A DNA stretch of 64,000 nucleotides from Henckelia pumila (lineage: Eukaryota > Streptophyta > Magnoliopsida > Lamiales > Gesneriaceae): positions 31,665,374-31,729,373 of the forward strand of contig NC_133121.1 in NCBI RefSeq assembly GCF_033568475.1. Direction: 5' to 3'. Within the stretch, counting starts at the first letter, position 1. Each line of letters starts with the position of its first letter. This document shows positions 3,955 to 31,268 of this stretch, in pieces. Under the pieces are notes generated by a model, which worked only from the letters and a program-made list of their open reading frames with translations, was not told where the DNA came from and made no database searches. Both the position numbers and the translations under genes were made by a program.

Positions 3955-4335
3955 AGTCGAGTCGAGTCGAGCCAAGCCGATCAGTATCATGCTCGGACTC
4001 AGTTTGTTTGACAGAAATAAGGGTTCGAGCTCGGCTCGAGCTCGATCCGAACTTTTATCACAAGGCTTGGGTTTGGCTCGTTTAGTATATATAAAAGCTC
4101 GGGCTCGGCTCGTTTATCATATTAAACAAGTCTAACTCGAGTTCGGCTCGTTAAGCCGGCTCGTTAGAGAGCTCGTATTCAGGCTCGTTAGTGAGCTCGT
4201 TTTCCGGCTCGTTAAGCAATGCTCGTTAGTGAACTCGTTAAGGAAGCTTGTTTTGAGGCTCATTAAAGTGAGCTCGTTAAGTAGGTTTGTTTCTGACTCG
4301 TCAGACTCAAACATACAAAAAGAGCTCGAGTTTGA
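3955..4335. repeat. GCTCG/CGAGC-rich repetitive block
   Basis: Dense degenerate repeats built on gctcgtta, gagctcg and ggctcg, starting with three direct copies of gtcga. At least eight GCTCGTTA-like units occur between 4140 and 4290. The composition resembles the CGAGC-rich hAT-type MITE at 63296-63704, but I could not find terminal inverted repeats or a target duplication here. It abuts the broken 3' end of the pararetrovirus at about 4340 and lies about 300 bp upstream of RPT1. It may be a truncated MITE. Confidence 0.6.
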
Positions 4336-4339
4336 TTTT

Positions 4340-5416
4340 TTTCGTCATCCTCATCTACGGGTATAGCCATTTTCGGGAGTTTCTTACATATCTCCTTAAG
4401 TTGGTTTACCCCTTTAGTATGTTCATCGGTCCATATAAACCTTTCATCTTTTTTTAACAAAGAACTGAACACCTTCATGTACATCACTAGGTTGTTTATG
4501 AACATCACTGCAAAATTAACCACTCCGAGAAAACTTTGGAGTTGTTTTACATCTTTGAGTTTATCTGGAAAATTCTGTACCTTTTCCACAATATGGGGCT
4601 GTAGAATTATTCCAGATTCATCAATCTCAGTGCCAAGGAATTTGATTTTTCTTGTTGTTATAACTGCTTTTTTTTCAGATAAAATCAGTCCTTCTTTTTT
4701 ACATATTTTAGAGAAAATCTCTAAATGTTTAACATGTTCGTCTATATTTTTGGATGCTATAATAATATCGTCAATATAAACAAACATGAAGTTAAACTAA
4801 TCTTTAAAAAGATTATCCATCTTTCTTTGAAATATTTGGGGTGCATTAGCCAATCCCATATGCATAACTTTCCAAATATAATGTCTTTGTGGTGTAGAGA
4901 AGGCTGTGAATTTCTTACTACCTTCTTCCATCCAAATCTGATAGAACCCAGATTGCAATCAAATTTTGAGAACACTCTAGCATTTCGGACGCAGCTGATT
5001 AAGTGTTCTCTACTGGGTATGAAGTACCTGTCGAACTCCAAAATTTTATTAATACCTTGATAGTTAATAACTAGTCTGAGTTTACCTCTCTTTATTTTCT
5101 CATGATTTCTGACCAGGAAATCTGGACTGCTATATGGTGAAACTTTTTATTTTATTAGACCAAGGTCCAAATATTCCTTGATAATTATCCTCATATCCAT
5201 TTGATCTGTTATGTTCATTGTGATATACTTATATCTAACAAATTCATACTCTTTGCTTTCCTTTAAAGTAAGGATGACTTTGAGTTGATTTCTATCCCAC
5301 CATGTCAAAGGATGCTCATTATAACTTTCTTTGAGCTTCTTTTTGACATTTTCAAGGGATACCTTATTTTCTAACTCTATATCTCTATGGATTAGAGTTA
5401 CCTCGAGAAGATCCAT
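4340..5416 (-). pseudogene. Caulimovirid reverse transcriptase remnant
   Basis: Two coherent pieces are visible. The upstream one (5416-5147) holds the segment that precedes the RT palm in caulimovirids, ending in the motif EYLDLGLIK. The downstream one (4787-4340) opens with the catalytic box VYIDDI and continues through FLGTEID and the LQSFLGVVN thumb/connection segment. The part between them (about 4788-5146) is frameshifted, so the palm motifs before YIDD are out of frame. The coding sequence stops where the GCTCG repeat begins, just before RNase H would start. Confidence 0.85.
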
Positions 5417-5419
5417 ATC

Positions 5420-5980
5420 CTATGTTTGGAGTTCTTGTTCTGTTGTTATTTTTAACATAGTTTCTCCAAACCTCCTGGAATCTTTCATCTTTGAGTGTAA
5501 AAGTTGTCCTTTATCACCATGCTGGCTGCGGAACATGATCGACATATGTCGATAAAAGGCAACCTTGAGTCTTTGAACTATGATTTTACGATCACAAATC
5601 GTAGTGAACATAAGTCGTCTTGACTTATTGTCTCGTGTGTATTTCTTAAACATTTGTAAGAAGTTATTTTCTAACAAGATATCAGCTCCGGTATCATGGA
5701 AATATATGGGTGGTGTCTTTACCTTGTACCAAGGTGTTTGGCCTGCTCCTCCCATAAGAATCTCTGCTTGTTTTATTCCTTTGCAAAGAATTAAAATTTT
5801 TCGAGAGAGACCACGTCTAGAAATTTTTGGTAAGTCTTCTTCACAATTCCCAGGGAAGACGCCTCTTTTTGCTATGCAAATTCCTGCTCCTGAATCAATA
5901 TAGGCTGCGAAGTATTCTGCCTTATATTGTTCATACAACATCCCGATTGGAATGTATATGAAGAAAGAGCTTGTTGTCAT
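5420..5980 (-). pseudogene. Caulimovirid aspartic protease region
   Basis: An open frame of 186 codons. Near residue 29 is the catalytic signature YIDSGAG (D-S-G form), followed by a second conserved block around HDTGADILLENNFL, as expected for the pepsin-like protease upstream of the caulimovirid reverse transcriptase. It is separated from the reverse transcriptase only by a few bases and a stop, so the two were probably one polyprotein. Confidence 0.75.
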
Positions 5981-15720: not shown

Positions 15721-16267
15721 TTCTCCCTCACTTAAGAGATTTTACCATCGAAATTAACTCTTAAGTAAACGAAACTCAATAATGAACAAAACATCCTTTT
15801 ATTACCACTGAATATTTTACAAGATACAATACTTAAAACAAAAGTACAATCAAAACAACTCAAGATGTTCCAAAGGCACACGGCTGTCTAGTTCCCAAGT
15901 GGTTTCCTCAGTGCCTCGATGTTGGCACTTAACTAGAACGAGAGGAATGATCTTGTTTCGCAACACCTTATTTTATGATCTAGAATACACAAAGGTCTCT
16001 TCACATATGTCAAGTCTGTATCCAGCTGTACCTCAGACGGCTGTAAGATGTGAGACTCATCTGCCACATACCATCGCAATAGGGATACATGAAACACATC
16101 GTGGATGCTAGACAAATACGGTGGCAAAGCAAGTCTGTAAGCAAAATCTCCAACACTTTCCAAAATCTCGAATGTGCCAATGAATCTCGGAGATAACTTT
16201 ATCTTGAGACCAAATCTCAATATCCCCCGAAAGGGTGAAACTTTCATGAACACTGTTTCCCCAAACG

Positions 16268-16335
16268 AAATAATAATAATACTTTAATTTTAATTTTTTA
16301 ATAATATTTTAGATTTAATAAAATTTTATAATTAA

Positions 16336-16415
<80 letters not shown>

Positions 16416-16586
16416 CGGGGCGGGTTCGGGGATGGGGATAGCATCCCCATACCCGCCCCAATATATTTCGGGGATTTTTAAAAATCCCCGAACCCGAACC
16501 CATACCCGAAAATACTCCCCCAAACCCACCCCGTTTCGGATTTTCCCCACGGGTACCCGAACCCGCGGGGAAAATTGTCATCCCTG
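16268..16586. mobile_element. MITE-like insertion in element E integrase
   Basis: About 320 bp that interrupts the integrase reading frame. The right end reads aaaattgtcatccct, the form seen at ends of GC-rich hAT-like MITEs. The interior alternates gggttcgggg/ccccgaaccc half-sites that can form long hairpins (16417-16570). The left part is AT-rich with an ATT microsatellite and no matching terminal repeat, so the element is probably truncated or rearranged there. Confidence 0.55.
16337..16416. repeat. (ATT)n microsatellite
   Basis: About 26 uninterrupted ATT units. On either strand it encodes homopolymers (Ile or Asn), which create spurious open frames. Confidence 0.97.
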
Positions 16587-17803
16587 ACTGCGCTTGGCAT
16601 TAACATAACTGGATTGTCGGTCCTGTGCAGTTCTAATGCGTCTCTTGATCTAATCAACTATATCAACGGCCTGCTGGATTAGTTATGGTCTTTCCACCTG
16701 TCGTTCCCCAACTTATTCTCAGAACAATGGAGTACGAAATCGTCATCCATACAACGATTCAAATGGTGCCATAGCAATACTGCGATGATACATGTTGTTG
16801 TACGCGAATTCAATCAATGGTAAATGATCTTATCAAGCTGGACCAAAATTCATAGTACACGCTCGTAACATATCCTCAAGAGTACGGATCGTACGCTCTG
16901 TCTGCCCATCAGTCTTTGGATGATATGTTGTACTCAAACTGAGAGTAGTGCCCAAAGCACGCTAAAAACTCCCCCAGAACCTCGAAGTAAACCTGGGGTC
17001 TCTATCACTGACAATACTCACATGTACTCCGTGGAATCGTACAATCTCCTTAATGTACAAACGAACCATCCGATCTAAAGTGTAATCTCGGTTATATGGA
17101 AGAAAATGTGCTGACTTGGTGAGTCGATCCACCACAACCTAGATAGCATCACAATTCTTTGAAGACACTGGCATATGGGTCACAAAGTCCATCGTGATAA
17201 ACTCTCACTTCTACCCCAAAATCGGCAAACTATGAAGCAATCCTCCATGTCATCGATGTTCCGCCTTAACCTGTTGACATACCAAACATCTAGAAACATA
17301 CTGGTAAACACCGCGCTTCATTCATTTCCACCAGAACCGGGTCTGCAAATCCTTGTACATCTTATTGCTCCCTGGGGAACACTCAACTTGGTACGATGTG
17401 CTTGAGATAAAATCTCCTCTTTTAGAGTGTCATCCTCAGGTACCACAATACGTCCGGATAAGCAAGAAATCCATATGAATGGTAATAGAATCCAGAAGTA
17501 CTATCACTGTTGGCTACCCTAGCCAATCGCCGAGTCTTTGGGTCAGACATCTGAGCATCACGAATCTGAGAATACAAAGCTGGTTCAGATAGAATAAAAA
17601 AAATCTGAATACTCACCATTACCTTCTTATGCTTAAAGATGAATCCAAAAGAACGACAATCCTGAATCGCACTAGAGATAAGACAAGACTGTAGTGCAAA
17701 TACTCACACTTTGCGACTCAAAGCATCAACAGTAGGATTAGAAGCACCTGGATGATATTTAATTTCGCAATCATAATCCTTCAGCAAATCCATCCAGCAT
17801 CAC

Positions 17804-19592
17804 TGCTACAACTTAAATTGTAATTCACCCAAGTGTAGGTTGTCTGCAAGTAATATACTCGTGAGTACGAGATCGATCCACGGAGAGGATGTTGTAGGTT
17901 TAATTTTAGCAATGATATATTATAGATGAAAATATTATTATAAAACTTCTAATACAAATTATAAAATTGTCAAGGCTTCAAAGGTTCATTGTTGGTTTAT
18001 TTAAGATTGCTTAACAAAAATAAATAAAAAAAACTAAAATAAGAATAAACATAAAAGAACAATGAAATATTTAAACAAATATATCATATAATATAGTTTC
18101 CACTATATTAATATCAGATTAACCAATATTTAATACATGGTACTCATAATATATATATATATATAGATGCATAAATATTAACATAAAAAAACAATTAAAT
18201 ATTTAAACAAATATATCATATAATATAGTTCTCACTATATTAATATCAGATTAACCGATAATTAATATATGGTACCCATAATAAATATATAAGTGCATAA
18301 ATATAAATTGACATAAAATTAAATGTTAGATCAAATCACCATATTTCATTTAGAACAACCGACAGAGCCACGCTATCGTCTAAATAAAATATATGACTTT
18401 TTATGTTAGATGCGATAAAGTAAATGTTAATTGCGGAAATGTAAATGTTAGTTGCGAAAAGTAAATGTTAATTGCGAAAAGTAAATGTTAGTTGCGAGAA
18501 AGTAAATGCTAGATCAAATCACAATATATTATTTAGAATAACTGGCAGAGCCACGCTATTGTCTAAATAATATATATGACTTTATTATAAATTGATGCAT
18601 ATATTTATAGTATATAATTATTGTAGTATTTATTGTATCATATTAGACAACAATTCAAGGTAACCACATTCAAGGTACCAAGTATTTGATGTAAATAGAT
18701 AACAATAAATCATCCAAATTATAACTACAAATAAAGATCAATTAGTAAAACAAAATAAAAAATAGAAAAAGAAAGAATATACAAAATATAAACAATCTTA
18801 CTTGACCAACAATGAAACCTTTTCACCTTGACATAAAAAGATTTAGCTTGTCATGAACATGAAACTCAAGAATAAGGATAAAAGAAATTTCATACTTGAA
18901 CTTGAGAAACTTGCACACTCAAACTTTTATTCTCACACACACAATATTTATTTTACAAATGAGGAATTTCTCTACACTTTTGCATACTACAAAGCTTATA
19001 CAACACATCTATTTATAGGCCAAATGAGAGCAAGAGTTCAAGGCTCATTAAATGTGGAATAATAAAGTTGATGGGTGCTTGTCTCCTTGAATGTCAATAC
19101 CATGATCCAACTTTAATTGACATGTTTGATGCCTTAGACCACCGATTCAGTCTTTCCATTCAACATAGAACACGTAGGATATTTTGTGTAGATGTGTTTG
19201 GACATATAATTCACCTCTTTTGGGTAAAAGGTGAAATAGTTATGATATTTTTACTACAAGCTGGTCATAGTAAAAGTAAATCTGTCTCCATTTTGATGTT
19301 TGATTATTTTGATCATCTTAATGAGGTTTTTGGAATTTCTTGTCTTCTACAAAGTTTAAGATGCCTCTTTTTTGATTCTACAGGATTTGAGATTACTCCA
19401 ATATGATCTTTGTAGCTTGAGTAATTTTATTTTTACCAAATTTGCGCAAAACATAAAATACAACATTTTTAGTAAAATATTTAAATATAAACACATAACA
19501 CTAAAATAATACAACTTCATAATTTTAATGAAATTTTCATTTTAAAATACACTTTTTAACATATAAATAATTACAAATTTTAAGTTTCATCA
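17804..19592 (-). repeat. Athila-like element 3' LTR
   Basis: 1789 bp. It contains an approximately 125-bp tandem duplication (about 18060-18300), a minisatellite of about 21-bp units (18415-18506) and a second internal duplication around gcagagccacgctat (18367 and 18546). It keeps the ancestral empty site for the hAT MITE found in the other LTR (near 18710). Confidence 0.93.
18415..18506. repeat. Minisatellite in 3' LTR, unit gtaaatgttaattgcggaaa
   Basis: Four degenerate copies of a roughly 20-22-bp unit. The equivalent array in the 5' LTR (28560-28660) has a similar copy number but different variants. Confidence 0.8.
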
Positions 19593-19615
19593 CACCCCCA
19601 AACCGGCTAATTACT
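19593..19615 (-). other. Athila-like polypurine tract
   Basis: On the minus strand the sequence just before the 3' LTR reads GGTTTGGGGGTG, then TGATGAAACTT. A G-rich tract in this position is the expected primer site for plus-strand DNA synthesis. Confidence 0.75.
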
Positions 19616-21025
19616 AGTCCCTTAGTAATAAAATATCATAAAAAATCATAAAATCACAAGTTAGATTTTTATTCCTTAATATATATATATATATTCAAAT
19701 TTGCAAACCTTAACATTTTAAAACACACTTATAAGGAGATCATATGTTTATTTATAAATCTTGCTATCAACTAATATATTAATATATAATTGGATGAGTT
19801 ATACATATATATTTCACACAATATCAAAATATTAAATATATATAATTTTTTATATAAATATTTTCTAAAAATTTTGAGAATAATATAATCAAAATGATAA
19901 TAGAAATCATTTTCATAACATGTATAATATCAAAAATATTAATGTAAAAGTCTCAAATCCATATTTTCTCGGGTTATGATATTTCATATATAACCGTTTT
20001 TCACTCATGGAGTTGGAAGAAAATTATACACTCATTGAAAATGGCTAATAAAGCAGACAATCAAATAACCTAATATTGAAAATAAGATAGGATAATTTAC
20101 AAAGAATAAACCCATTTTGTTTTTTTTTTTTATTTTTTTTCTTTTTTCTAATTTTTTTTTGGTTGGCTGCAAAATTGTTTTTGCATAACCAAATACCTCC
20201 AATAAACTTTGAAAAAGTAACATTTTTTTTTCAAAGTTTATTTATTTGTTTATTTTTTTATGAGGTAAATCTATTACATTGATAATTATAGTAGAGATAT
20301 TAATACTCTACATCTTTACAATCAAACTCCAAAAAACTTTGCAGCCAATTTTTATATGCACATTTTTTTTTCAAAATGGGTTTAATCTAGTAATCAACCA
20401 TTTTTTAATAATCAATAAAAGCTTATAAGTTGTTTTCTCAATTCTCACCTCTCACTCACAAAATTTATGTGAGTATATATTGCACTTTTACAAATTAATT
20501 CCTTCAATTATACATGTTATTATTCATTCAATCAATATCACCTTAACTATATATTCATAAAAGTTTTAGAAAATATGTTATTTGAAAACACACAATTATA
20601 TATTATTTATAACTTATATCCCATCAATTATATATTTTCTATTAAATTGATAAAAAGAAGAATAAATAAACATCTATACAAAAAGACTTCATTTTCTTAG
20701 TAGTTTGCAATTTAAATATATACGGAATAATAAAATCTAATCTATTGTGATAATATGATAAATAAAAACTAATGCGTGTCAGGAGCTTTTGACTCCTTAC
20801 TCTGCCATTGAAAAAGGAAAAATAAATATTATTAAAGAAATATTTTTTTTTATTTTTAAATTTTTATTTTTTTTTAATTTTTAAAAGATAAACCCTCCCC
20901 CAAACATGAATATGACATTGTTTTTAATTTTTTAAAGAAAAATAAAGAGTACATGATGAAAGAGATATCACCTGAAATTTATTAAAGATGAGGAACAAAC
21001 ACAAACCATTTCGTGACATGTTGAA
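19616..21025. other. Athila-like element 3' untranslated region
   Basis: About 1.4 kb of very AT-rich DNA between the LOG stop codon and the polypurine tract. It contains long T and AT runs (19680-19695, 20119-20160, 20845-20880). No reading frame with a recognisable domain is present on either strand. Confidence 0.6.
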
Positions 21026-21663
21026 TCAATGATCCAATTTTCTTTTCTTACTGGTTGGTTGAGACCAATTGATATTTGTTATAGACGAATCAGGTTGATG
21101 AACAAAAGCTTGGAGATCATCAATTAATTGGTCGTCATTCGAAGCAGAGATGAGCATCCTTCATGAATTTTCTGAAATAAAATTTTGTTCCACAGCTACA
21201 TCAAGAAAAGTCAACAAACCATCATAATAGTTATTGATATTCAACAAACCAACAAGTTTATTATGAATATGAAGTTGTGCCCAAGAAACAACATGAAAAA
21301 TTTCTTCTAAAGTACCAAAACCACCTGGTAAGGCAATAAAAGCATCAGAATTATCTATCATTTTAGTTATTCTCTCGTACATTGATGAAACTTTCAACTC
21401 TTCCCCAACCGTAACACCTGTAATATTTCCTTCAGCTAAAGCTGTAGGAATAATACCCAAAACCTGACTACCTCCAAGATGAGCTGCTGTTGAAATAGAT
21501 CCCATTAACCCAATATTGCCTCCTCCGTATACCAAATGAATTTTTCTCTCTGCTAACTTTTTTTCAAGATTAATTGCTGCATCAACAAATATTTCACTCT
21601 TTCCGGTGTTAGAACCACAAAATACACAAATATTTTCAATTTTTGTGAAGCAAATCCTGCCAT
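21026..21663 (-). pseudogene. LOG: LONELY GUY (LOG) cytokinin riboside 5'-monophosphate phosphoribohydrolase, captured in retrotransposon, intronless
   Basis: LOG enzymes release active cytokinin bases from nucleotide precursors. Hallmarks in order: ICVFCGSNTGKSEIF, LVYGGGNIGLMG, VLGIIP, the retained Arg in MYERITKM, and the catalytic PGGFGTLEEIF motif (PGGxGTxxE). The C-terminal part RMLISASNDDQLIDDLQAF ends in KKRKLDH at a TGA (21028-21026). The coding region is continuous, whereas plant LOG genes have several introns, so it came from processed RNA. Lesions: an in-frame TGA at 21163-21161, 44 codons before the natural end, and the nearest ATG (21663-21661) is one frame off. It lies sense to the element, after integrase. 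Confidence 0.9.

Positions 21664-21664
<1 letters not shown>

Positions 21665-21698
<34 letters not shown>
21665..21698 (-). repeat. 34-nt poly(A) tract (minus strand) between the two captured ORFs
   Basis: The plus strand shows 34 consecutive T, so the element's sense RNA carries A34. It lies about 280 nt after the stop of the cysteine-rich ORF and 1 nt before an ATG at the start of the LOG region. It could be a fossil poly(A) tail of the upstream captured RNA or a simple homopolymer expansion. Confidence 0.95.
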
Positions 21699-21700
<2 letters not shown>

Positions 21701-21865
21701 AAAAATATAGAGATAGTTGAGTGATTTTATAAGGAAAACAAGGAATACGACAGAAATAGGAATACAGGTGTGAACATAATAACGAAAACAATATAAATAA
21801 TAATATATAATAATGACATGCATGCGCATATACAGTGATTGTGGCTCACAGTGTTCCTTCAATAT

Positions 21866-22417
21866 TTATGAGTTGAGGGTTGGCTTACCATCCAATTTTC
21901 TTATAAATTGGCAAATAGGGTCTTTTTTAGTCAGATTCCCAAGACCATTACCATGACGCTGTGCTTGGAATAGTTTTCATAAACGGAGAAGTTGACCTTG
22001 CACATCTCCACTAGAATGCGTCTCAAGAGTCAATGAGATATTATCTAATGACTCTTTACTCAGCCCATTCTTAATGAAATAAATTTTATCTTCTCTATTT
22101 GTGGAAACATATCCCAAAGATCTGCATCTTCTATCACAAGTCCATCTGGCACATTTATGACAAACATTTAACCTTTTGGCCCTCCTTTTCTTCGCATAGG
22201 TGCTTTTTCCTAGTCCAGACATATTTCGAACAAGTAAGAATTTTGGAACTTCACCACCCAATTGAACTTTGGCTTCAATTATAAGACGAATATCCTCCGA
22301 AATTCCTTTTTGCATAAGCATTCTCAATCTTTCACATCTACCTTCATAAATCATTCTCAGAACTTTTTTAGAAACAAATGGAAAATATTTACCATGTTCT
22401 TTGATAGCTTCATCCAT
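21866..22417 (-). pseudogene. Cysteine-rich protein resembling carlavirus nucleic-acid-binding protein, captured in retrotransposon
   Basis: A frame of 146 codons from ATG 22417 to a TGA at 21979-21977; the same frame then stays open 36 more codons to a TAA at 21868-21866, so the TGA may be a recent lesion. Residues 69-80 (LGKSTYAKKRRA) are a basic block directly followed by a Cys cluster (C86, C89, C94, C98; CHKCARWTC). A Gly/Ser-Lys-Tyr-Ala-basic segment just before Cys-x2-Cys is the layout of the small 3'-terminal carlavirus proteins (PF01623), which bind nucleic acid and suppress silencing. No retroviral domain looks like this. Assignment is by motif recall only; another zinc-binding protein is possible. 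Confidence 0.5.
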
Positions 22418-22534
22418 TTTGAAAATAAAGAATTTTTTTTTTCAATTATTTTGGGAAATTGAAAGAAAACCGACTAAAAGAAGTCACGGAGTACCGTTAT
22501 CCGCCACTTAACCGGGAAGTGAACTCAATTCTGC

Positions 22535-22562
22535 AAAAATAAAATGAAAATATAAGTAACAA
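22535..22562 (-). promoter_or_regulatory. Splice-acceptor-like site between integrase and captured ORFs
   Basis: On the minus strand, immediately after the integrase stop, the sequence reads TATTTTCATTTTATTTTTGCAG followed by AATTGAG. A long pyrimidine/T-rich tract ending in GCAG is a strong plant 3' splice signal. In Athila-type elements the env-like gene in this position is thought to be expressed from a spliced RNA, so the captured ORFs may have used the same route. Confidence 0.55.
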
Positions 22563-24470
22563 TTAATTTGGATCATATAAAGGCATAAACTCATCATTAA
22601 GAATTTCATTTTCTAAAAATGGTTTAAGCCTTTGTCCATTAACTTTAAACACATTATTATTTTTAGGATTTTTAACATCAACAACACCATGAGGATAAAC
22701 ATTTTTTACAACATATGGACCTGTCCATCGTGATCTAAGTTTTCCTGGAAACAAATGCAAGCGAGAATTATAAAGTAAAACTTTTTGTCCAATTTCAAAC
22801 GATTTTCTCATAATATTTTTATCATGAAAGACTTTTGTTTTATCTTTATAAATCTTTGCATTTTCATATGCATCATTTCTTAATTCTTCTAGTTCATTTA
22901 GTTGCAATTTTCTTAATTTAGATGCATCATCTAAATTAGTATTAAATGCTTTAATAGCCCAATAAGCTTTATATTCAATTTCAACAGGTAGATGACAATG
23001 CTTACCAAAAACTAACCTATATGGTGACATCCCTAATGATGTTTTAAATGCAGTTCTATATGCCCATAATGCATTACTTAATCTTAAACCCCAATCTTTT
23101 CGATTTGTATTAACAGTTTTTTCCAAAATTTGTTTTATTTCTTTATTTGCAAGTTCAACCTGACCATTCGTTTGAGGGTGATATGAAGTAAAAACTTTAT
23201 GTGTAATACCATATTTTCTTAACAAAGAAGAAAATGATTTATTTATAAAATGACTTCTCCCATCACTGATTATAGCTCTAGGTATTCCAAATCGACTAAA
23301 AATATTTTCTTTCAAAAATTTTATCACAACTTTATGATCATTAGTTCTACATGCAATTGCTTCAATCCATTTTAAAACATAATCGACAACCACTAAAATA
23401 TAAGTAAATCCAAAAGATAATGGGAATGGACCCATAAAATCTATTCCCCAACTGTCAAATATTTCAATAATCATGATTGGATTTAAAGACATCATGTTTT
23501 GTTTTGAAATTGAACCCATTTTCTGACAATTTTCACAAGATTTGTAAAATGAATGCGTATCTTTGAATAAAGAAGGCCAATAAAATCCACATTGAAAGAT
23601 TTTTGCAGCTGTTTTCTTTGACGAAAAATGACCTCCACATGCCTCAGAATGACAAAATTTATTGACACTACTTACCTCATTGTCGGGTATGCAACGTCGA
23701 AAAATTTGATCAGGACAATACTTAAACAAATAAGGATCATCCCAATAAAATTTTTTGACCTCTTTCAAGAATTTATTTTTATCTTGTGAACTCCAATGAG
23801 AAGGCATTTTATTTGTCACAAAAAAATTTACAATATTAGCAAACCAAGGCATAGTAGTAGCATAGAATAGTTGATCATCCGGAAAATTTTCATTTATTGA
23901 TATTTCATTTTGAGACGATTCAAAAATTATTCTTGATAAATGATCGGCTACTACATTTTCTTTTCCTTTTTTATCTTTTATTACAAGATCAAATTCTTGT
24001 AACAACAAAATCCATCTTATTAATCTCGGCTTTGCATCTTGTTTATTTGATAAATATTTTATGGCAGAATGATCAGTATAAACAATAGTAGTAGAACCAA
24101 TTAAATAGGATCGAAATTTATCTAATGCAAACACTATTGAAAGTAATTCTTTTTCAGTTGTTGAATAATTGATTTGAGCACTATTTAAGATTCTACTAGC
24201 ATAGTAGATCACATGAGGTTTACCTTCTTTTCTTTGTCCTAACACGGCTCCTACAGCATAATCACTTACATCACGTATTAATTCAAATGGTAAAGACCAA
24301 TCAGGAGTTTGTAAAATAGGTGAAGTAGTTAAAAGATTAATTATCTTTTTAAAAGCAGTTTCACATTCTTGAGTCCATTCAAATTGTGCATCTTTTGTTA
24401 AAAGATTTGAAATTGGTTTCGATATTATGCTAAATTTTTTTATGAACCTTCTTTAAAATCCCGCATGACC
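22563..24470 (-). CDS. Athila-like RNase H and integrase
   Basis: An uninterrupted 560-codon frame from the first Met (24245-22563) that is open further upstream to about 24445. RNase [51 protein letters not shown]. Integrase: the His/Cys zinc-binding domain (HSEACGGHF through CENCQKMG) and a DDE core with [18 protein letters not shown] and [16 protein letters not shown], all catalytic residues present. The C-terminal [11 protein letters not shown] block precedes the stop after LYDPN. No chromodomain, as expected for Athila. A stop and a frameshift at about 24450-24470 separate it from RT. Confidence 0.92.
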
Positions 24471-25172
24471 CAAAAATGATAATTTCTTTGATCGTGTTTG
24501 GTGATGGTAAATTAGCAATAACATCAACCTTAGCTTTATCAATTTCAATTCCTTTTTCAGATATGACATGCCCTAACACAATTCCGGATTTAACCATGTA
24601 ATGACATTTTTCCCAATTTAAAACAAGATTTTTTTCTTCACATCTTTTTAAAACTTCTTCCAAATTTTTAAGACAGTTTTCAAATGAGTTTCCAAAAACA
24701 GTTATATCATCCATAAAAACTTCCACAAATTCTTCAATCATGTCACTAAAAATACTTAGCATGCATCTTTGAAAAGTTGCCGGAGCATTACATAAACCAA
24801 ATGACATTCTTTTAAATGCAAAAGTTCCAAAAGGACAAGTGAAAGTAGTTTTTTCTTGATCTTCTAATGATATTGGTATTTGATAATACCCCGAATACCC
24901 ATCAAGAAAATAATAATAAGGATTACCTGCCACTTTCTCTAAAATTTGATCTAAAAATGGTAACGGAAAGTGATCTTTTCTAGTTGCATCATTTAATTTT
25001 CTATAATCAATGCACATACGCTAACTAGATGGAATCCTAACTTGTAATAATTCTCCCTTTTTATTTTTTTTATAACAGTGATGCCTGATTTTTTTGGTAC
25101 TAATTGTGTTGGACTTACCCATTTACTATCCGAGATTGGATAAATAATTCCGGCATCTAATAGTTTTAAAAC
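24430..25172 (-). pseudogene. Athila-like reverse transcriptase (frame broken)
   Basis: An open frame of 195 codons, 25017-24430, starts at MCIDYRKLNDATRKDHFPLPF and carries FALCNAPATF-type (FGLCNAPATFQRCM) and catalytic FMDD boxes, then VLGHVISEKGIEIDKAK. The N-terminal segment (25172-25018) continues from the protease frame and includes LLDAGIIYPISDSKWVSPTQ, with stops. A frameshift near 24470 hits the connection to RNase H. Confidence 0.88.
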
Positions 25173-25982
25173 TTAATTTTTAACAACTTCTTTCATGTGT
25201 GGATTTAATCTTTTTTGAGGTTGTTGATATGTTTTAGCATTTTCTTCCAAGTGAATTCTATGTGTGTAGATTAAAGGATTTATACCTTTTATATCCTGCA
25301 AAGTCCATCCAATTGCATTTTTGTGTTTTTTATGTAATATTATTAAATCTTCTTCTTGTTTTGGTAAGATGGTAGAAGATATTACATTAGGATATGTTTG
25401 ATTTTCACCAAGAAAAACATATTTTAGTTCTTTTGGCAAAGGTTTTAATTCAAGTTTTGGATGATCATCTTTTTTTACTTCTTCAAGTTCATTAATTTCT
25501 TCAAATAACTTTGATTTAAAAACACTTTCCACTAAATAAACTTCAGATTGTTGATTTAAGTTTTCTTGGTGTATATTTTCTTTCACAATTGTTTCTATTG
25601 CATTATCATCTTCATCTTCATTAATAATTGGTTGTTTACATAAGTTGAACACATTAAGTTCTAAAGTCATATTTCCAAAAGATAATTTCATTATTCCATT
25701 TCGACAATTAATTAAAGCATTTGAAGTTGCTAGAAATGGACGTCCCAATATTACTGGAATTTCATTATGCACTTCTATTGGTTGTGTATCCAAGACAATA
25801 AAATCCATAGGATATATGAATTTATCGACTTGAACTAACACATCTTCTACGATACCTCTAGGTATTTTGATTGACCTATCGGCTAGTAAAAGAGTGACAG
25901 ATGTAGGTTTTAAATCTCCCAACTTAAGTTTTTTATAAACTGAATAAGGAAGTAAATTCACACTTGCTCCCAAATCTAACAA
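25173..25982 (-). CDS. Athila-like protease region
   Basis: An open frame of 269 codons. The catalytic motif LDLGASVNLLPYSVYKKL (Asp-Leu-Gly-Ala-Ser form) lies at the N-terminus, followed by LADRSIKIPRGIVEDVLV and VILGRPFLATSNALI. The C-terminal half leads into RT with the segment LNPHMKEVVKN. The Asp-x-Gly active site is intact. The frame ends at a stop at about 25173 that interrupts the original gag-pol polyprotein. Confidence 0.88.
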   Translation of the reverse strand: MLDLGASVNLLPYSVYKKLKLGDLKPTSVTLLLADRSIKIPRGIVEDVLVQVDKFIYPMDFIVLDTQPIEVHNEIPVILGRPFLATSNALINCRNGIMKLSFGNMTLELNVFNLCKQPIINEDEDDNAIETIVKENIHQENLNQQSEVYLVESVFKSKLFEEINELEEVKKDDHPKLELKPLPKELKYVFLGENQTYPNVISSTILPKQEEDLIILHKKHKNAIGWTLQDIKGINPLIYTHRIHLEENAKTYQQPQKRLNPHMKEVVKN

Positions 25983-26203
25983 AGCTTTTTTAATTTTATT
26001 TTTTCCAATAATTCATGAAATTGTTGGACAACCTGGATCTTTATATTTTAAAGTAGAATTATTTTGAATAATAGAACTTACTTGTTTAGTTAAGAATGCT
26101 TTCTTCTTTACATGCAATTGTCTTTTCACAGTACATAAATCTTTTAAAAATTTTGCATAAGAAGGCACTTGTTTAATAGCATCTAATAATGGAATATTTA
26201 TTT

Positions 26204-27853
26204 TTACTTGTTTAAAAACTTCATAAATATCAGAATCATTTTTTTTTGTTTTTTATTGTTTACTAATGCATGAGGAAAAGAAACATGTTTATTTGACTCA
26301 TATATTACTTCAGATAATTTATCATCAACTTTCTCAATCTTAGGACTCAAAGTATCATCTTTCTCGAAAGTATCAAGATTTTCATCCTTACTCTTTGAGT
26401 TTGACTGATCTTTGTTTTCATCACTATATGGATCATTAACTATTTTACCACTTCTAAGAGTAATAACAGATTTTACTTGATCAAACTTATCTTGATTTTG
26501 ATTTTTAGGATTAGGTTGTGGTTGAGATGGAAATTTTTCCTTTTCATGAATATTAAGTGCAGATGCAAATTTTGCAAGAGTTTCTTTCAAATCATTCATG
26601 GATTGAATGTTTTGAATATTGATAGACTCTTGCTTCTGAATGTATGCATGAATTTCATCTTCAAAATGTTTTCTTGGAGGTGGGATATAAGGAACATAAC
26701 CTTGATATTTTGGTTATTTTGAAAAGGTTGTTGTGAAGGTTGTGCATTATTATCATTCCTCCAACTAAAATTAGGATGATTTCTCCAACCAGGATTATAT
26801 GTTTGTGAAAAAAGATCTAATGTTGCTTTTTTAAAATTGTTAACATAATTGGCTTGTTCATGGAGACATTCTTTAAATGAAGAAAAAATAGGACAATTTT
26901 TTGTAAGATGATCATGTGTGTCACATATATGACAAACAATTTCTTGAACACTTTTTAATTGATCACTCTTTTTCATTTGTAATGACTCAATTTTTCTTGC
27001 TAAAGATGCAAGTTTGGCTTGAATATTTACATCATTTTTAAGATGGTAAATACCAACCCCATTTGTTGAATTATTGGTTTTACTTGGTGGTTCAATTGAG
27101 CCTATATTATCCCAATTTTGAGCATTTTCTGCTAATGACTCCAAATATTCCATAGCTTCATTTGGGTTTTTATCTTCAAAAGTTCCATTACACATGAATT
27201 CTATCATTTGTCTATCTTTAGGTATTAAACCTTCATAAAAGTGAGAAACTATCCTTCATATTTCAAAACCATGATGTGGGCATGTATTAAGTAACTCTTT
27301 ATATCTATCCCAACATTGATAAAATGTTTCCCCTTGTTTTTGAGAAAAAGTTGTAATTTGTCTTTTAAAAGAGTTTGTTTTATGGGAAGGGAATTTTTTT
27401 TTTAAGAAATTGTTGTTGCATTTCTTTCCATGATGTTATTGAACTTGATCTCAAATTTTGCAACCATGTTTTAGCTTTATCTTTTAAAGAAAAAGGGAAA
27501 AGCTTTAATCGAACAATATCCATGCTACAATTTTGATCATTATAAGTGTTTCAAACCTCCTCAAATTCTCTTAAATGCAAATATGGATTTTCAGAATCTA
27601 GGCCATGAAAATTTGGTAAAAGTTGAATAATTTGAGGTTTAAAATTGAAATTAGATGCATCAGGAGGAAAAACTAAACAAGATGGTGTACTAGTTCTTAT
27701 TGGATTCATATGGTGCCTAAGTGTTCTTGGTTGTTCATGTTCTTGATTATTATTATTATTATCATCTTGATTATTAGAATTATCCTCCATGTTTAAAATA
27801 TTTTCAAATACTCGAACAAGTCTACCACTTTGTTTACGACTCCAAACAATCAT
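26204..27853 (-). pseudogene. Athila-like gag (frameshifted)
   Basis: Three coherent pieces. The first (27853-27551) contains RTLRHHMNP, IQLLPNFHGL and ENPYLHLREFEEV. The second (27207-26596) contains MCNGTFEDKNPNEAMEYL, LAENAQNWD and a zinc knuckle CHICDTHDHLTKNCP (C-x2-C-x4-H-x4-C). The third (26599-26204) contains VITLRSGK, the region just before protease. The piece between 27550 and 27208 is frame-broken. The order and motifs are those of an Athila gag polyprotein. Confidence 0.88.
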
Positions 27854-27921
27854 ACAATTAAAAATAACATACTATTTACATAAATAACATAAATAAAAAA
27901 AAAGTAAACTTAATTTATACC

Positions 27922-27939
27922 TCCCCGGCAACGACGCCA
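27922..27939 (-). other. Athila-like primer-binding site (tRNA-Asp)
   Basis: The minus strand reads TGGCGTCGTTGCCGGGGA, starting 6 nt after the 5' LTR end. This complements the 3' end of plant tRNA-Asp with about one mismatch, the primer used by Athila/Tat elements. Confidence 0.85.
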
Positions 27940-28559
27940 AAAACTTGCTACAACTTAAATTGTAATTCACCAAAGTGTAGGTTGTCTGCAAGTAATATAC
28001 TCGTGAGTACGAGATCGATCCACGGAGAGGATGTTGTAGGTTTAATTTTAGCAATAATATATTATAGATGGAAATATTATTATAAAACTTCTAATACAAA
28101 TTATAAAATTGTCAAGGCTTCAAAGGTTCATTGTTGGTTTATTTAAGATTGCTTAACAAAAATAAATAAAAGAAACTAAAACAAGAATAAACATAAAAGA
28201 ACAATGAAATATTTAAACAAATATATTATATAATATAGTTCCCACTATATTAATATCAGATTAACCAATATTTAATACATGATACCCATAATATATATAT
28301 ATAGATGCATAAATATAAACATAAAAGAACAATTAAATATTTAAACAAATATATCATATAATATAGTTCCCACTATATTAATATCAAATTAACCGATAAT
28401 TAATATATGGTACCCATAATATATATATATATATATAAGTGCATAAATATAAATTGACATAAAATTAAATGTTATATCAAATCACCATATTTCATTTAGA
28501 ACAACCGGCAGAACCACGCTATCGTCTAAATAAAATATATGACTTTTTATGTTAGATGC

Positions 28560-28660
28560 GATAAAGTAAATGCTAATTGCGGAAAGTAAATGTTAATTGC
28601 GGAAAATAAATGTTAATTGCGGAAAGTAAATGTTAGTTGCGAGAAAGTAAATGTTAGATC
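28560..28660. repeat. Minisatellite in 5' LTR
   Basis: Four copies of a unit near gtaaatgttaattgcggaaa, homologous to 18415-18506. Confidence 0.8.
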
Positions 28661-28855
28661 AAATCACAATATATTATTTAGAACAACCGGCAGAGCCACA
28701 CTATTGTCTAAATAATATATATGACTTTATTATAAATTGATGCATATATTTATAGTATATAATTATTGTAGTATTTATTGTATCATATTAGACAACAAAT
28801 CAAGGTAACCACATTCAAGGTACCAAGTATTTGATGTAAATAGATAACAATAAAT

Positions 28856-29581
28856 TAGGGGTGACAAATTTTACATAAATCCCGATCCATCCCGATTCCC
28901 GACCCGTTCCCGTCCCGAATTTTTTCCGTCCCGAACTTTTCACGACCCGAGTGGTCGGGATTTTTTCCAACCCGATCAATTTCGGGATCGGGATCGGGAT
29001 AGGCAACTTTTCCCGACGGGATTCCCGACCCGACCCGAATATAAAAATAATATTTTTTAAATAATATTTTTTAATTAAAAAAATAATTTTTTTTAATTTT
29101 ATGTTTTAATATTAATGTTTTATAATTATATACCATATAATTTTTTTAATATTTATCTTTTTTAATATTAACATTGAGTTATAAATTTTTATTTTGTTTT
29201 TTAATTATTATGAATAATTATATGTTTTTTTTATTAATCAAGTAGTTGTTTTAGTTTATTTTAATGTACTTAAAAAATGTTTTAGTTTTTTAATGGTTAT
29301 ATATAAAGAAATTTTAATTTATTTGTAATGTATTAAGAAATTGTTTGATTTTTTTCATAATTTTTTTTTAAAAAATATTTACATAGAATTTTTTTTTAAA
29401 AAAATATTATTCGGGATTACCCTCTCCCGACCCGACGGGATCCCGAATGTTCGGGATCCCGAACATTCGGGTCACGACACTTCTCGGGTGTGGGATCAGG
29501 ATAAAAAAAATCTCAATTTCTATCGAGACGAAAATCGGGCAAGGGGGTTACGGGACGGGTCCCGACCCGATTCCACCCCTA
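28856..29581. mobile_element. hAT-type MITE, 726 bp, 8-bp TSD caataaat
   Basis: Ends are TAGGGGTG and CACCCCTA, perfect inverted octamers. It is flanked by perfect 8-bp direct repeats caataaat (28848-28855 and 29582-29589). The other LTR of the same element has this octamer only once, giving the unfilled site. The interior has GC-rich cccgacccg/cgggatcggg arms (28880-29040 and 29410-29575) around an AT-rich centre. TIR and TSD size fit the hAT superfamily. Confidence 0.93.
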
Positions 29582-30476
29582 CAATAAATCATCCAAATTA
29601 TACCTACAAATAAAGATCAATTAGTAAAACAAAATAAAAAATAGAAAAAGAAAGAATATACAAAATATAAACAATCTTACTTGACCAACAATGAAAACTT
29701 TTCACCTTGACATAAAAAGATTTAGCTTGCCATGAACATGAAACTCAAGAATAAGGATAAAAGAAATTTCATACTTGAACTTGAGAAACTTGCACACTCA
29801 AACTTTTATTCTCACACACACAATATTTATTTTACAAATGAGAAATTTCTCTATACTCTTGCACACTACAAAGCTTATACAACACATCTATTTATAGGCC
29901 AAATAAGAGCAAGAGTCCAAGGCTCATTAAATGTGAAATAGTAAAGTTGGTGGGTGCTTGTCTCCTTGAATGTCAATACCATGACCCAACTTTAATTGAC
30001 ATGTTTGATGCCTTAGACCACCGATTCAGCCTTTTCATTCAACATAGAACACGTAGGATATTTTGTGTAGATGTGTTTGGACATATAGTTCACCTCTTTT
30101 GGATAAATGGTGAAATAGTTATGATATTTTTACTACAAGCTGGTCATAGTAAAAGTAAATCTGTCTCCATTTTGATATTTGATTATTTTGATCATCTTAA
30201 TGAGGTTTTTGGAATTTCTTGTCTTCTACAAATTTGAAGATGCCTCTTTTATGATTCTATAGGATTTGAGATTACTCCAATATGACCTTTGTAGCTTGAG
30301 TAATTTTATTTTTACCAAATCTGCGCAAAACATAAAATACAACATTTTTAGTAAAATATTTAAATATAAACACATAACACTAAAAGAATACAACTTCATA
30401 ATTTTAATGAAACTTTAATTTTAAAACACACTTTTTAACATATAAATAATTACAAATTTTAAGTTTCATCAGTCAC

Positions 30477-31268
30477 TGTCACATATTCAACTCTTTCCGA
30501 GTAAACAAATACTTGAGACTCTTGTGATCAGTGAAGATTTCAAATTTCTCGCCATACAGATAATGACACCAAATCTTCAATGCAAAGACGATAGCTGCTA
30601 GTTCAAGATCATGCACTGGATAATTCCCTTCGTGAACCTTCAGCTGTCTAGATGCACATGCAATCACATACCCATTCTAAGTCAGAACACAGCCTAATCC
30701 TTGCAGAGAAGCATAAGTATACACAATACACCCTCGAGAACCAGCAGTAGTGCCAACACAAGTGCAGAAGTCAACCGTCGCCAAAGTTCACAAAAATTCT
30801 CCTCAGAGTCTGATGACCACTCGAAAGTTACGCCTTTACGAGTAAGTTGCGTCAAAGGTCGAGCTAACTGCGAGAAATTTGCGATGAAATAGAGATAATA
30901 TCCTGCTAGACCCAGAAAAATACGGATCTTAGCCACCGTCGTCAGATGCAACCAATTCAACACAACATATATCTTGCTTGGATCAACTGAAACTCCGTGA
31001 CTGTATATGACATGGCCAAGGAACACCACGTGATCAATCCAAAACTCACACTTACTTAGTTTTGTGTAAAGTTTCCTTTCCCGGAGAGTCTTTAAAATGA
31101 GCCTTAGATGATATGCATGCTCATCCAAATTACGAGAATAAACCAGAATATCATCGATGAACAAAACCACAAACTTGTCTAAATGAAAACACGATTAATC
31201 AAATCCATGAATACAAACGGTGCATTAGCCAATCCAAATGGCATTACCAAGAACTCATAATGCCCATG
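30477..31268 (-). pseudogene. Element E pol, RT and RNase H (upstream half)
   Basis: The minus strand continues element E across the Athila insertion. The RT piece (31170-30694) has [47 protein letters not shown] and FEWS. The segment before it (31268-31171) reads [17 protein letters not shown] with a lesion before FIDD. RNase H (30667-30479) has [13 protein letters not shown] and [11 protein letters not shown]. Coding similarity stops abruptly at about 31268, where plus-strand sequence of another element begins. Confidence 0.85.

What the first reader, a model, noticed from the sequence alone, without database searches (positions are those of the whole stretch)
21026..21663. LTR retrotransposon carrying a captured, intronless LONELY GUY gene
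The LOG frame lies between integrase and the 3' LTR of an Athila-like element, in sense orientation, inside a clear LTR pair with a target duplication. All signature motifs are present (CGSNTGKS, YGGGNIGLMG, PGGFGTLEE), and the coding region is continuous where host LOG genes have several introns. Capture of a cytokinin-activating enzyme by a plant retroelement would be unusual; cytokinin pushes cell division and shoot meristem fate, the tissue from which a new copy reaches the germline. The benefit to the element is speculation.
Basis: partly seen in the sequence, partly recalled or inferred. Interest (0 to 1): 0.9.

Follow-up and report, generated by a model that had tools for sequence, protein, structure and literature searches.

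The report
Retrotransposon carrying LOG plus virus-like gene
This is one aged copy of a young, many-copy family of plant jumping genes that carries two passenger genes side by side, one derived from a plant hormone-activating enzyme and one resembling an RNA-virus protein; the same pair is indicated in maple and yellowhorn.

Summary
The observation mostly holds. A minus-strand LTR retrotransposon (17804-30471; LTRs 96.9% identical; 5-bp TSD with one transition) carries an intronless LOG frame in sense between integrase and 3' LTR. In this copy LOG is broken (frameshift near the ATG, stop at 21161-21163).

In the host assembly LOG gives 150 scored matches (441 candidates). All 50 copies I examined hold LOG at the same place; 7 of 10 tested copies have perfect, mutually different 5-bp TSDs, and those seven date to about 0-0.12 My. 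LOG is mobile cargo.

Records indicate the pair in Xanthoceras (consecutive locus tags) and Acer (one gene model). Cargo LOGs form one clade across eudicots (99/97). They mostly keep the proposed catalytic Arg/Glu, but 138 of 156 replaced the adenine-binding Lys; of 117 complete ones 92 end in LxLxL, against 0 of 31 ordinary LOGs.

YgdH/LOG domains in Citrus and Populus gypsy elements are already in print; the pairing was not found in my searches. Function is inferred.

The parts
30472..30476 (.). target-site duplication, GTGAC read on the minus strand
27946..30471 (-). 5' LTR (2526 bp), holding a 734-bp hAT-MITE-like insert at about 28856-29589
27922..27939 (-). primer-binding-site-like stretch TGGCGTCGTTGCCGGGGA (tRNA-Asp type is recalled, not computed)
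26204..27853 (-). gag region, broken into three ORFs; no Pfam gag match (best eIF3g 22.7 bits, below its cut-off)
25173..25982 (-). aspartic-protease-like ORF (PF13650 19.9 bits, below its cut-off of 24.3)
24430..25017 (-). reverse transcriptase ORF (PF00078 2.1e-28)
22563..24245 (-). RNase H and integrase ORF (PF17917, PF17921, PF00665)
22531..22544 (-). splice-acceptor-like stretch TTTTATTTTTGCAG upstream of the NABP-like gene
21869..22417 (-). cargo gene 1: carlavirus-NABP-like, Cys4 zinc finger and basic stretch; in this copy interrupted by a stop at 21977-21979
21665..21698 (-). 34-nt A run, the expanded form of an A-rich purine leader before the LOG ATG in the younger copies
21026..21664 (-). 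cargo gene 2: LOG-type frame, intronless; in this copy frameshifted near the ATG and stopped at 21161-21163
20880..21025 (-). 3' flank of LOG that aligns with the LOG-less relative L001
   Evidence: score 56; best of 1000 shuffles 46
19593..19604 (-). polypurine-tract-like GGTTTGGGGGTG before the 3' LTR
17804..19592 (-). 3' LTR (1789 bp)
17799..17803 (.). target-site duplication, GTGAT read on the minus strand

Best explanation
The LOG frame is cargo of an Athila-type Ty3/gypsy family that multiplied very recently in this plant. The family carries two sense ORFs after integrase: a carlavirus-NABP-like protein, then a LOG-derived protein. Shown: element anatomy; both genes side by side in all 50 copies examined; different TSDs; very young copies; intact frames; non-neutral substitution in LOG. 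Indicated by records, without their DNA: the same pair in Acer and Xanthoceras. Inferred: the LTR promoter makes the RNA; splicing at the conserved acceptor-like site puts the NABP AUG first; LOG is then reached on the same RNA through its A-rich purine leader. Inferred function: the NABP-like protein binds RNA and dampens RNA silencing of the element, as the carlavirus protein does for its virus. The LOG protein is a nucleotide N-glycosidase of altered base preference, or has become a nuclear accessory, rather than a plain cytokinin activator.
For: Anatomy. Copies: 150 scored of 441 candidates for LOG; 150 scored of 490 for NABP. Pairing: 30 of 30 and 20 of 20 copies picked by NABP alone. TSDs: 7 of 10 perfect, all different. 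Age: LTR pieces of those seven, 917-1046 bp, 0-3 mismatches. Selection: LOG pN/pS 0.534 in 16 copies picked by NABP, neutral simulation median 1.04 (0 of 200 as low), shifted frames 1.05 and 1.11; NABP pN/pS 0.245 between this element and L001. Elsewhere: locus tags ACOSQ2_032186 (LOG, P0249) and ACOSQ2_032187 (NABP, P0073) on a contig of one length; P0253 of Acer yangbiense holds both. Clade: 47 cargo rows against 20 others, 99/97. LOG changes: Lys100 replaced in 138 of 156 cargo rows, kept in 34 of 34 others; LxLxL end in 92 of 117 against 0 of 31. Silencing suppression by a carlavirus p12: PMC7588395 (abstract and opening text).
Against: No expression, splicing, enzyme or silencing data. 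The carlavirus match is modest (29.2 and 23.4 bits; cut-offs 23 and 20.9), and two reversed control proteins gave unrelated matches at 2.4e-4 and 3.6e-3, below that family's cut-off. The NABP part of P0253 reached neither viral family; it is placed by 83% identity to P0073. The selection test on NABP inside this genome is weak (0.558; 4 of 200 simulations as low; one shifted frame 0.69). LOG copies picked by LOG similarity look over-conserved for that reason (0.081). The window copy itself is dead in both cargo genes and in pol. The LxLxL tail is absent from this plant's copies, which end SKKRKLDH.
Confidence: 0.8

Rival explanations
1. A lone processed LOG pseudogene, or a segment of host DNA, landed by chance in this one retrotransposon copy.
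For: The gene is intronless, preceded by a 34-nt A run and broken in this copy.
Against: 50 of 50 copies examined hold LOG at the same place with NABP upstream; 7 of 10 have different perfect TSDs. The A run lies 5', not 3', of LOG and is an expansion of a leader shared by the younger copies.
Confidence: 0.01
2. One reading: the LOG is a working cytokinin activator that promotes cell division and meristem fate, so that new copies reach the germline.
For: Intact frames in many copies; PGGxGTxEE and the proposed catalytic Arg and Glu are kept in this family's 28 copies checked; the Xanthoceras/Acer group of 18 rows also keeps Lys100; LOG frames are under constraint.
Against: In this family the adenine-binding Lys100 is Ile; alanine at the residues tested in the C. 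glutamicum enzyme nearly abolished activity (PMC4979012, passages). Cargo LOGs gained a C-terminal basic cluster (110 of 117) that no ordinary LOG in the set shows (0 of 31).
Confidence: 0.2
3. The cargo genes are inert hitch-hikers: captured once, copied because the element copies itself, with no benefit.
For: Additional ORFs in plant gypsy elements diverge fast and their function is questioned (PMC6317226, section 13). L001, a relative with NABP, shows no LOG in the about 1 kb after it.
Against: LOG pN/pS 0.534 against a neutral 1.04; NABP pN/pS 0.245 against L001; key active-site residues kept in most of 156 cargo LOG rows.
Confidence: 0.12
4. The NABP-like gene is not of viral origin but an element-born zinc-finger protein that resembles viral NABPs by convergence.
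For: The Pfam match covers 30-90 residues around a basic stretch and a Cys4 finger; reversed controls show that Cys-rich letters can give E near 1e-4; no profile match among solved structures (best E 0.34).
Against: 13 of 13 members scanned hit Carla_C4 and 12 of 13 Viral_NABP at E <= 0.01, with the best match running over 88 residues (P0007, 3.5e-8). Structure comparison could not be run.
Confidence: 0.3

Closest known systems
Athila lineage of plant Ty3/gypsy elements (OTA superclade; Neumann et al. 2019, PMC6317226)
   Same: No chromodomain and no additional (archaeal-type) RNase H found; long LTRs; large sense coding region between integrase and 3' LTR; 5-bp TSD.
   Different: In place of the env-like or Athila ORF-1 region there are two other genes, NABP-like and LOG.
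Ty3/gypsy elements with a YgdH (LOG-type) domain in Citrus and Populus (Alvarado-Marchena et al. 2022, PMC9289625, section 12; it cites Steinbauerova et al. 2011)
   Same: LOG-type domain inside plant gypsy consensus elements; Populus LOG rows fall in the same clade as this LOG.
   Different: That text mentions no carlavirus or nucleic-acid-binding gene (0 occurrences of either term), no pairing, no lost Lys and no tail.
Phalaenopsis gypsy elements with an AlkB-type RNA demethylase (PMC9289625, abstract and section 12)
   Same: A plant gypsy lineage that acquired an enzyme gene whose relatives act on nucleic acid.
   Different: Another enzyme; one cargo gene; one orchid genus.
Carlavirus NABP, e.g. 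chrysanthemum virus B p12 (PMC7588395, abstract and opening text)
   Same: Basic stretch followed by a Cys4 zinc finger; Pfam families Carla_C4 and Viral_NABP.
   Different: About 182 aa, carried by a retrotransposon, no other viral gene seen beside it, and far from the profile average.
Ordinary plant LOG proteins (LOG3, LOG7, LOG8)
   Same: PGGxGTxEE and the proposed catalytic Arg and Glu; about 50% identical to a LOG7-type protein.
   Different: Intronless, multi-copy, Lys100 replaced, C-terminal basic cluster and often LxLxL; a separate clade.

Membership tests
LTR retrotransposon | two LTRs with TG...CA ends | tested here: met
   2526 and 1789 bp, 96.86% identical over 1784 aligned bases
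LTR retrotransposon | short target-site duplication | tested here: met
   window GTGAC/GTGAT, one mismatch; 7 of 10 other copies perfect
Ty3/gypsy | order RT, RNase H, integrase | tested here: met
Athila lineage | no additional RNase H (the Tat mark) and no chromodomain | tested here: met
   one search shows neither in the RH-integrase ORF; criterion from PMC6317226 (passages, section 13)
Athila lineage | RT/RH/INT fall in the Athila clade of a tree | not tested
   no reference elements were at hand
LOG enzymes | PGGxGTxxE and the proposed catalytic Arg99/Glu122 | tested here: met
   the mapping of C. glutamicum numbers to plant letters is mine, by motif
LOG enzymes | adenine-site Lys100 | tested here: not met
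   Ile in this family; replaced in 138 of 156 cargo rows, kept in 34 of 34 others
LOG enzymes | hydrolysis of cytokinin riboside monophosphates | not testable with these tools
   needs an enzyme assay
carlavirus NABP | passes the Pfam cut-offs of Carla_C4 or Viral_NABP | tested here: met
   29.2 against 23 and 23.4 against 20.9; reversed controls matched neither family
carlavirus NABP | lies in a carlavirus genome after the coat protein | tested here: not met
   integrase precedes it in the window and in L001
carlavirus NABP | binds nucleic acid and suppresses silencing | not testable with these tools
   needs a bench assay

The most novel reading that the evidence does not exclude
The two cargo genes act as one counter-defence module that spread through eudicots with this retrotransposon lineage. 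The virus-like NABP blocks RNA silencing of the element. The former LOG has been rebuilt into a nuclear protein: most complete cargo LOGs gained a basic cluster and a C-terminal LxLxL (the EAR form that binds TOPLESS co-repressors, from recall), which would let a dimeric enzyme scaffold capture or redirect TOPLESS complexes, while loss of the adenine-site Lys gave up or changed the cytokinin reaction.
Probability: 0.12. Interest if true: 0.93.

Novelty: new variant of a known kind. Interest (0 to 1): 0.78.

Why it matters
Additional genes in plant LTR retrotransposons are usually unassignable, and whether they do anything is an open question. Here both extra genes resemble proteins with studied functions: an RNA-silencing suppressor class and a hormone-activating enzyme. 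They sit together in a family young enough to have LTR pieces without a single difference, with many intact copies. That makes the question of what cargo does for a plant retroelement testable with single-gene assays. It also suggests a route by which an RNA-virus-like gene became a standing part of a eudicot retrotransposon lineage, and it warns annotators: proteins named LOGL10 or LOG3-like in Populus and Primulina fall in the cargo clade.

Tried and rejected
Rejected: (1) The 34-nt A run as a viral poly(A) tail fused to LOG cDNA, my first idea. Younger copies have only a mixed A-rich leader there, so the run is a late expansion. (2) A lone processed pseudogene. (3) The LOG pN/pS of 0.081 as proof of selection: those copies were ranked by LOG similarity, so I repeated it on copies picked by NABP.

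Led nowhere: IMG/VR scans with NABP, LOG and the leader motif (none). PHROGs (none). Solved structures for NABP (nothing below E 0.34). Host LOG exons: full and exon-sized queries returned 150 cargo copies each, and the DNA pattern for the ordinary motif did not complete, so the donor gene and its introns in this plant are unknown. Structure prediction of NABP never started (queue full). Rows dropped before counts: three tandem or fused gene models (P0241, P0242, P0123) from the 190-row tree; copies not in one full-length frame from pN/pS (28 of 30 LOG and 28 of 30 NABP kept; 16 of 20 LOG and 18 of 20 NABP kept).

Full report
The element. The window (G000:C2:31665374-31729373 of an unnamed 885-Mb assembly) holds a minus-strand LTR element at 17804-30471. 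Its LTRs are 2526 and 1789 bp and 96.86% identical over 1784 aligned bases (56 mismatches, K2P 0.032), i.e. 1.2-2.3 My at 1.3e-8 and 7e-9 per site and year (rates recalled). The length difference is one 734-bp insert in the 5' LTR. It sits in an older Ty3 element. Read by eye, the flanks meet at GTGAC/GTGAT and give back an RNase H frame apart from substitutions. RT, RNase H and integrase are recognised. The gag region and protease fall below the Pfam cut-offs, and pol is split over several ORFs, so this copy is dead. Athila is the best label: no additional RNase H and no chromodomain (criteria from PMC6317226, passages and section 13). A tree of RT was not made.

LOG in this copy. The frame 21026-21664 is a LOG (PF03641 3.7e-33; TIGR00730 1.1e-45; Arabidopsis LOG3 structure 2a33 6.7e-55). 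One tblastn stretch covers residues 7-202 of a LOG7-type protein at 49%, so it has no introns. It is broken by a frameshift after the ATG and an in-frame stop.

A second cargo gene. The ORF between integrase and LOG matches Viral_NABP (1.1e-6) and Carla_C4 (5.8e-5), both above cut-off. 145 relatives reach E <= 0.001, 120 of them listed; the full-length form is about 182 aa. Of the 120 listed proteins 115 have the C-x2-C-x4-C-x3-C pattern. Of 13 scanned members 13 hit Carla_C4 and 12 Viral_NABP at E <= 0.01. Controls: two reversed proteins did not hit these families but gave an unrelated one at 2.4e-4 and 3.6e-3 under its cut-off, so Cys-rich letters inflate E-values. I therefore call it carlavirus-like, probably viral in origin.

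A relative without LOG. L001 is a 3330-bp contig filed under a Nomurabacteria MAG but of plant retroelement content. It has integrase (71% identical), the same leader, an intact NABP (66%) and no LOG in the about 1 kb that follows. The DNA after LOG in the window aligns with L001 shortly after NABP (score 56; 1000 shuffles, best 46). So LOG lies between flanks that L001 has next to each other. Gain here or loss there cannot be told apart. pN/pS-based dN/dS between the two elements is 0.245 for NABP (145 codons) and 0.144 for RH-integrase (463 codons), with dS about 1.0 and 1.5, near saturation.

Copies in the host genome. LOG: 441 candidates, 150 scored, listed at 90-100% identity, three with a stop inside the matched part. 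NABP: 490 candidates, 150 scored. Both are lower bounds ranked by similarity. In the 30 LOG loci taken, 30 have NABP 194-231 nt upstream on the same strand, the window copy included. By an automatic test LOG is intact in 28 and both genes in 26 of 30, one of the 26 (L009) with a frameshifted NABP end. To avoid picking by LOG, I took the 20 best NABP matches not yet held: 20 of 20 have LOG in place, 14 intact, 2 with a stop, 4 frameshifted. Of 10 copies tested for both ends, 7 have perfect 5-bp TSDs, all different (ACTAG, AAAAC, CAGGC, CAACC, GATAC, CAGAG, ATAGT). For two the 5' end was outside the stretch fetched, and for one neither end was found. LTR pieces of those seven (917-1046 bp) differ at 0-3 sites, two at none: 0-0.12 My.

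Selection. In the 16 NABP-picked copies with a full LOG frame, LOG pN/pS is 0.534; a neutral simulation gives 1.04 (0.75-1.58), 0 of 200 as low; the shifted frames give 1.05 and 1.11. NABP in 28 LOG-picked copies: 0.558 against 0.82 (0.56-1.32), 4 of 200 as low, shifted frames 1.08 and 0.69, hence weak. The simulation assumes a star tree.

Other plants. In Xanthoceras sorbifolium LOG P0249 is ACOSQ2_032186 and NABP P0073 is ACOSQ2_032187, on a contig of the same length. In Acer yangbiense one gene model, P0253, holds both; its NABP part is 83% identical to P0073 but reached neither viral Pfam family. I did not see the DNA of either. Cargo-clade LOGs are dispersed: by my count of names, 29 clusters on 14 chromosomes in Reevesia pubescens and 13 clusters on 11 in Diplodiscus trichospermus. 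In a 67-row tree the 47 cargo-type rows are one clade (99/97). The Xanthoceras/Acer rows and the window lie on opposite sides of its deepest split (39 others 100/99; the eight Sapindales-like rows 82/49). The NABP tree agrees where it can be compared (Xanthoceras with Acer 97/91; window with P0001, P0002 and P0012 100/100). This suggests an old pairing. Horizontal spread is not excluded.

What LOG became. In Corynebacterium LOG, Arg99 and Glu122 are proposed as catalytic and Met96, Lys100 and Glu121 hold adenine; alanine there nearly abolishes activity (PMC4979012, passages). In a 190-row set the cargo clade has 156 rows: Arg99 in 147, Glu122 in 151, Lys100 in only 18, the other 138 having Met, Ile, Leu or Val; the other 34 rows all keep Lys. 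Of 117 cargo rows with a complete end, 110 have a basic cluster and 92 end in LxLxL; of 31 ordinary LOGs none has either. Rows are clusters from two top-120 lists, often several from one plant, so they are not independent. This plant's copies have Ile at that position and end SKKRKLDH, without LxLxL (28 of 28). LxLxL as an EAR (TOPLESS-binding) motif is from recall.

Expression model (inferred). In 29 of 29 copies checked a GCAG lies 109-135 nt before the NABP ATG, with no ATG between in 28 (the pyrimidine stretch was printed for four of them and for L001). Before LOG, 28 of 28 young copies have no CAG within 60 nt. The 20 whose leader was printed show a pyrimidine stretch and then an A-rich purine leader up to the ATG. 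Xanthoceras LOG models P0244 and P0245 read lysine runs just before the Met, i.e. A-rich DNA there too. I infer NABP as first ORF of a spliced RNA and LOG reached internally or by reinitiation.

Novelty. LOG-type (YgdH) domains in Citrus and Populus gypsy consensus elements are in print (PMC9289625, section 12 read; Steinbauerova et al. 2011 not held). For the NABP gene, the pairing and the LOG changes I found nothing in searches (open-licence PMC papers only; listings, plus the passages).

Noticed in passing
window 28856-29589: 734-bp insert in the 5' LTR with ends TAGGGGTGG...CACCCCTA and the 8-bp repeat ATTTATTG on both sides: a hAT-MITE-like element.
   Followed up: partly
window 4263-5980 (minus): ORFs with a caulimovirus-type peptidase (PF02160, 5.1e-10) and reverse transcriptase: probably an endogenous caulimovirid fragment. 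Described only.
   Followed up: no
window 15933-17458 and 30473-31267: An older Ty3 element (SH3_Tf2-1, RNase H) into which this element inserted; relatives of it recur at about 47.3-49.8 kb.
   Followed up: no
L001 2348-2420; P0055; P0253: After the NABP stop the same frame stays alike across elements (KAFKPLLDVKPEEDVSHNHNY in P0055; similar in P0253 and L001), as if part of a longer protein or an RNA signal.
   Followed up: no
L001 1-3330 (DAIEQH010000041.1): A plant retroelement contig filed in a Candidatus Nomurabacteria MAG: contamination of a public record.
   Followed up: no
P0128, P0144, P0151: Proteins named LOG3-like (Primulina) and LOGL10 (Populus) fall in the retroelement LOG clade; probably element genes annotated as host genes.
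   Followed up: partly
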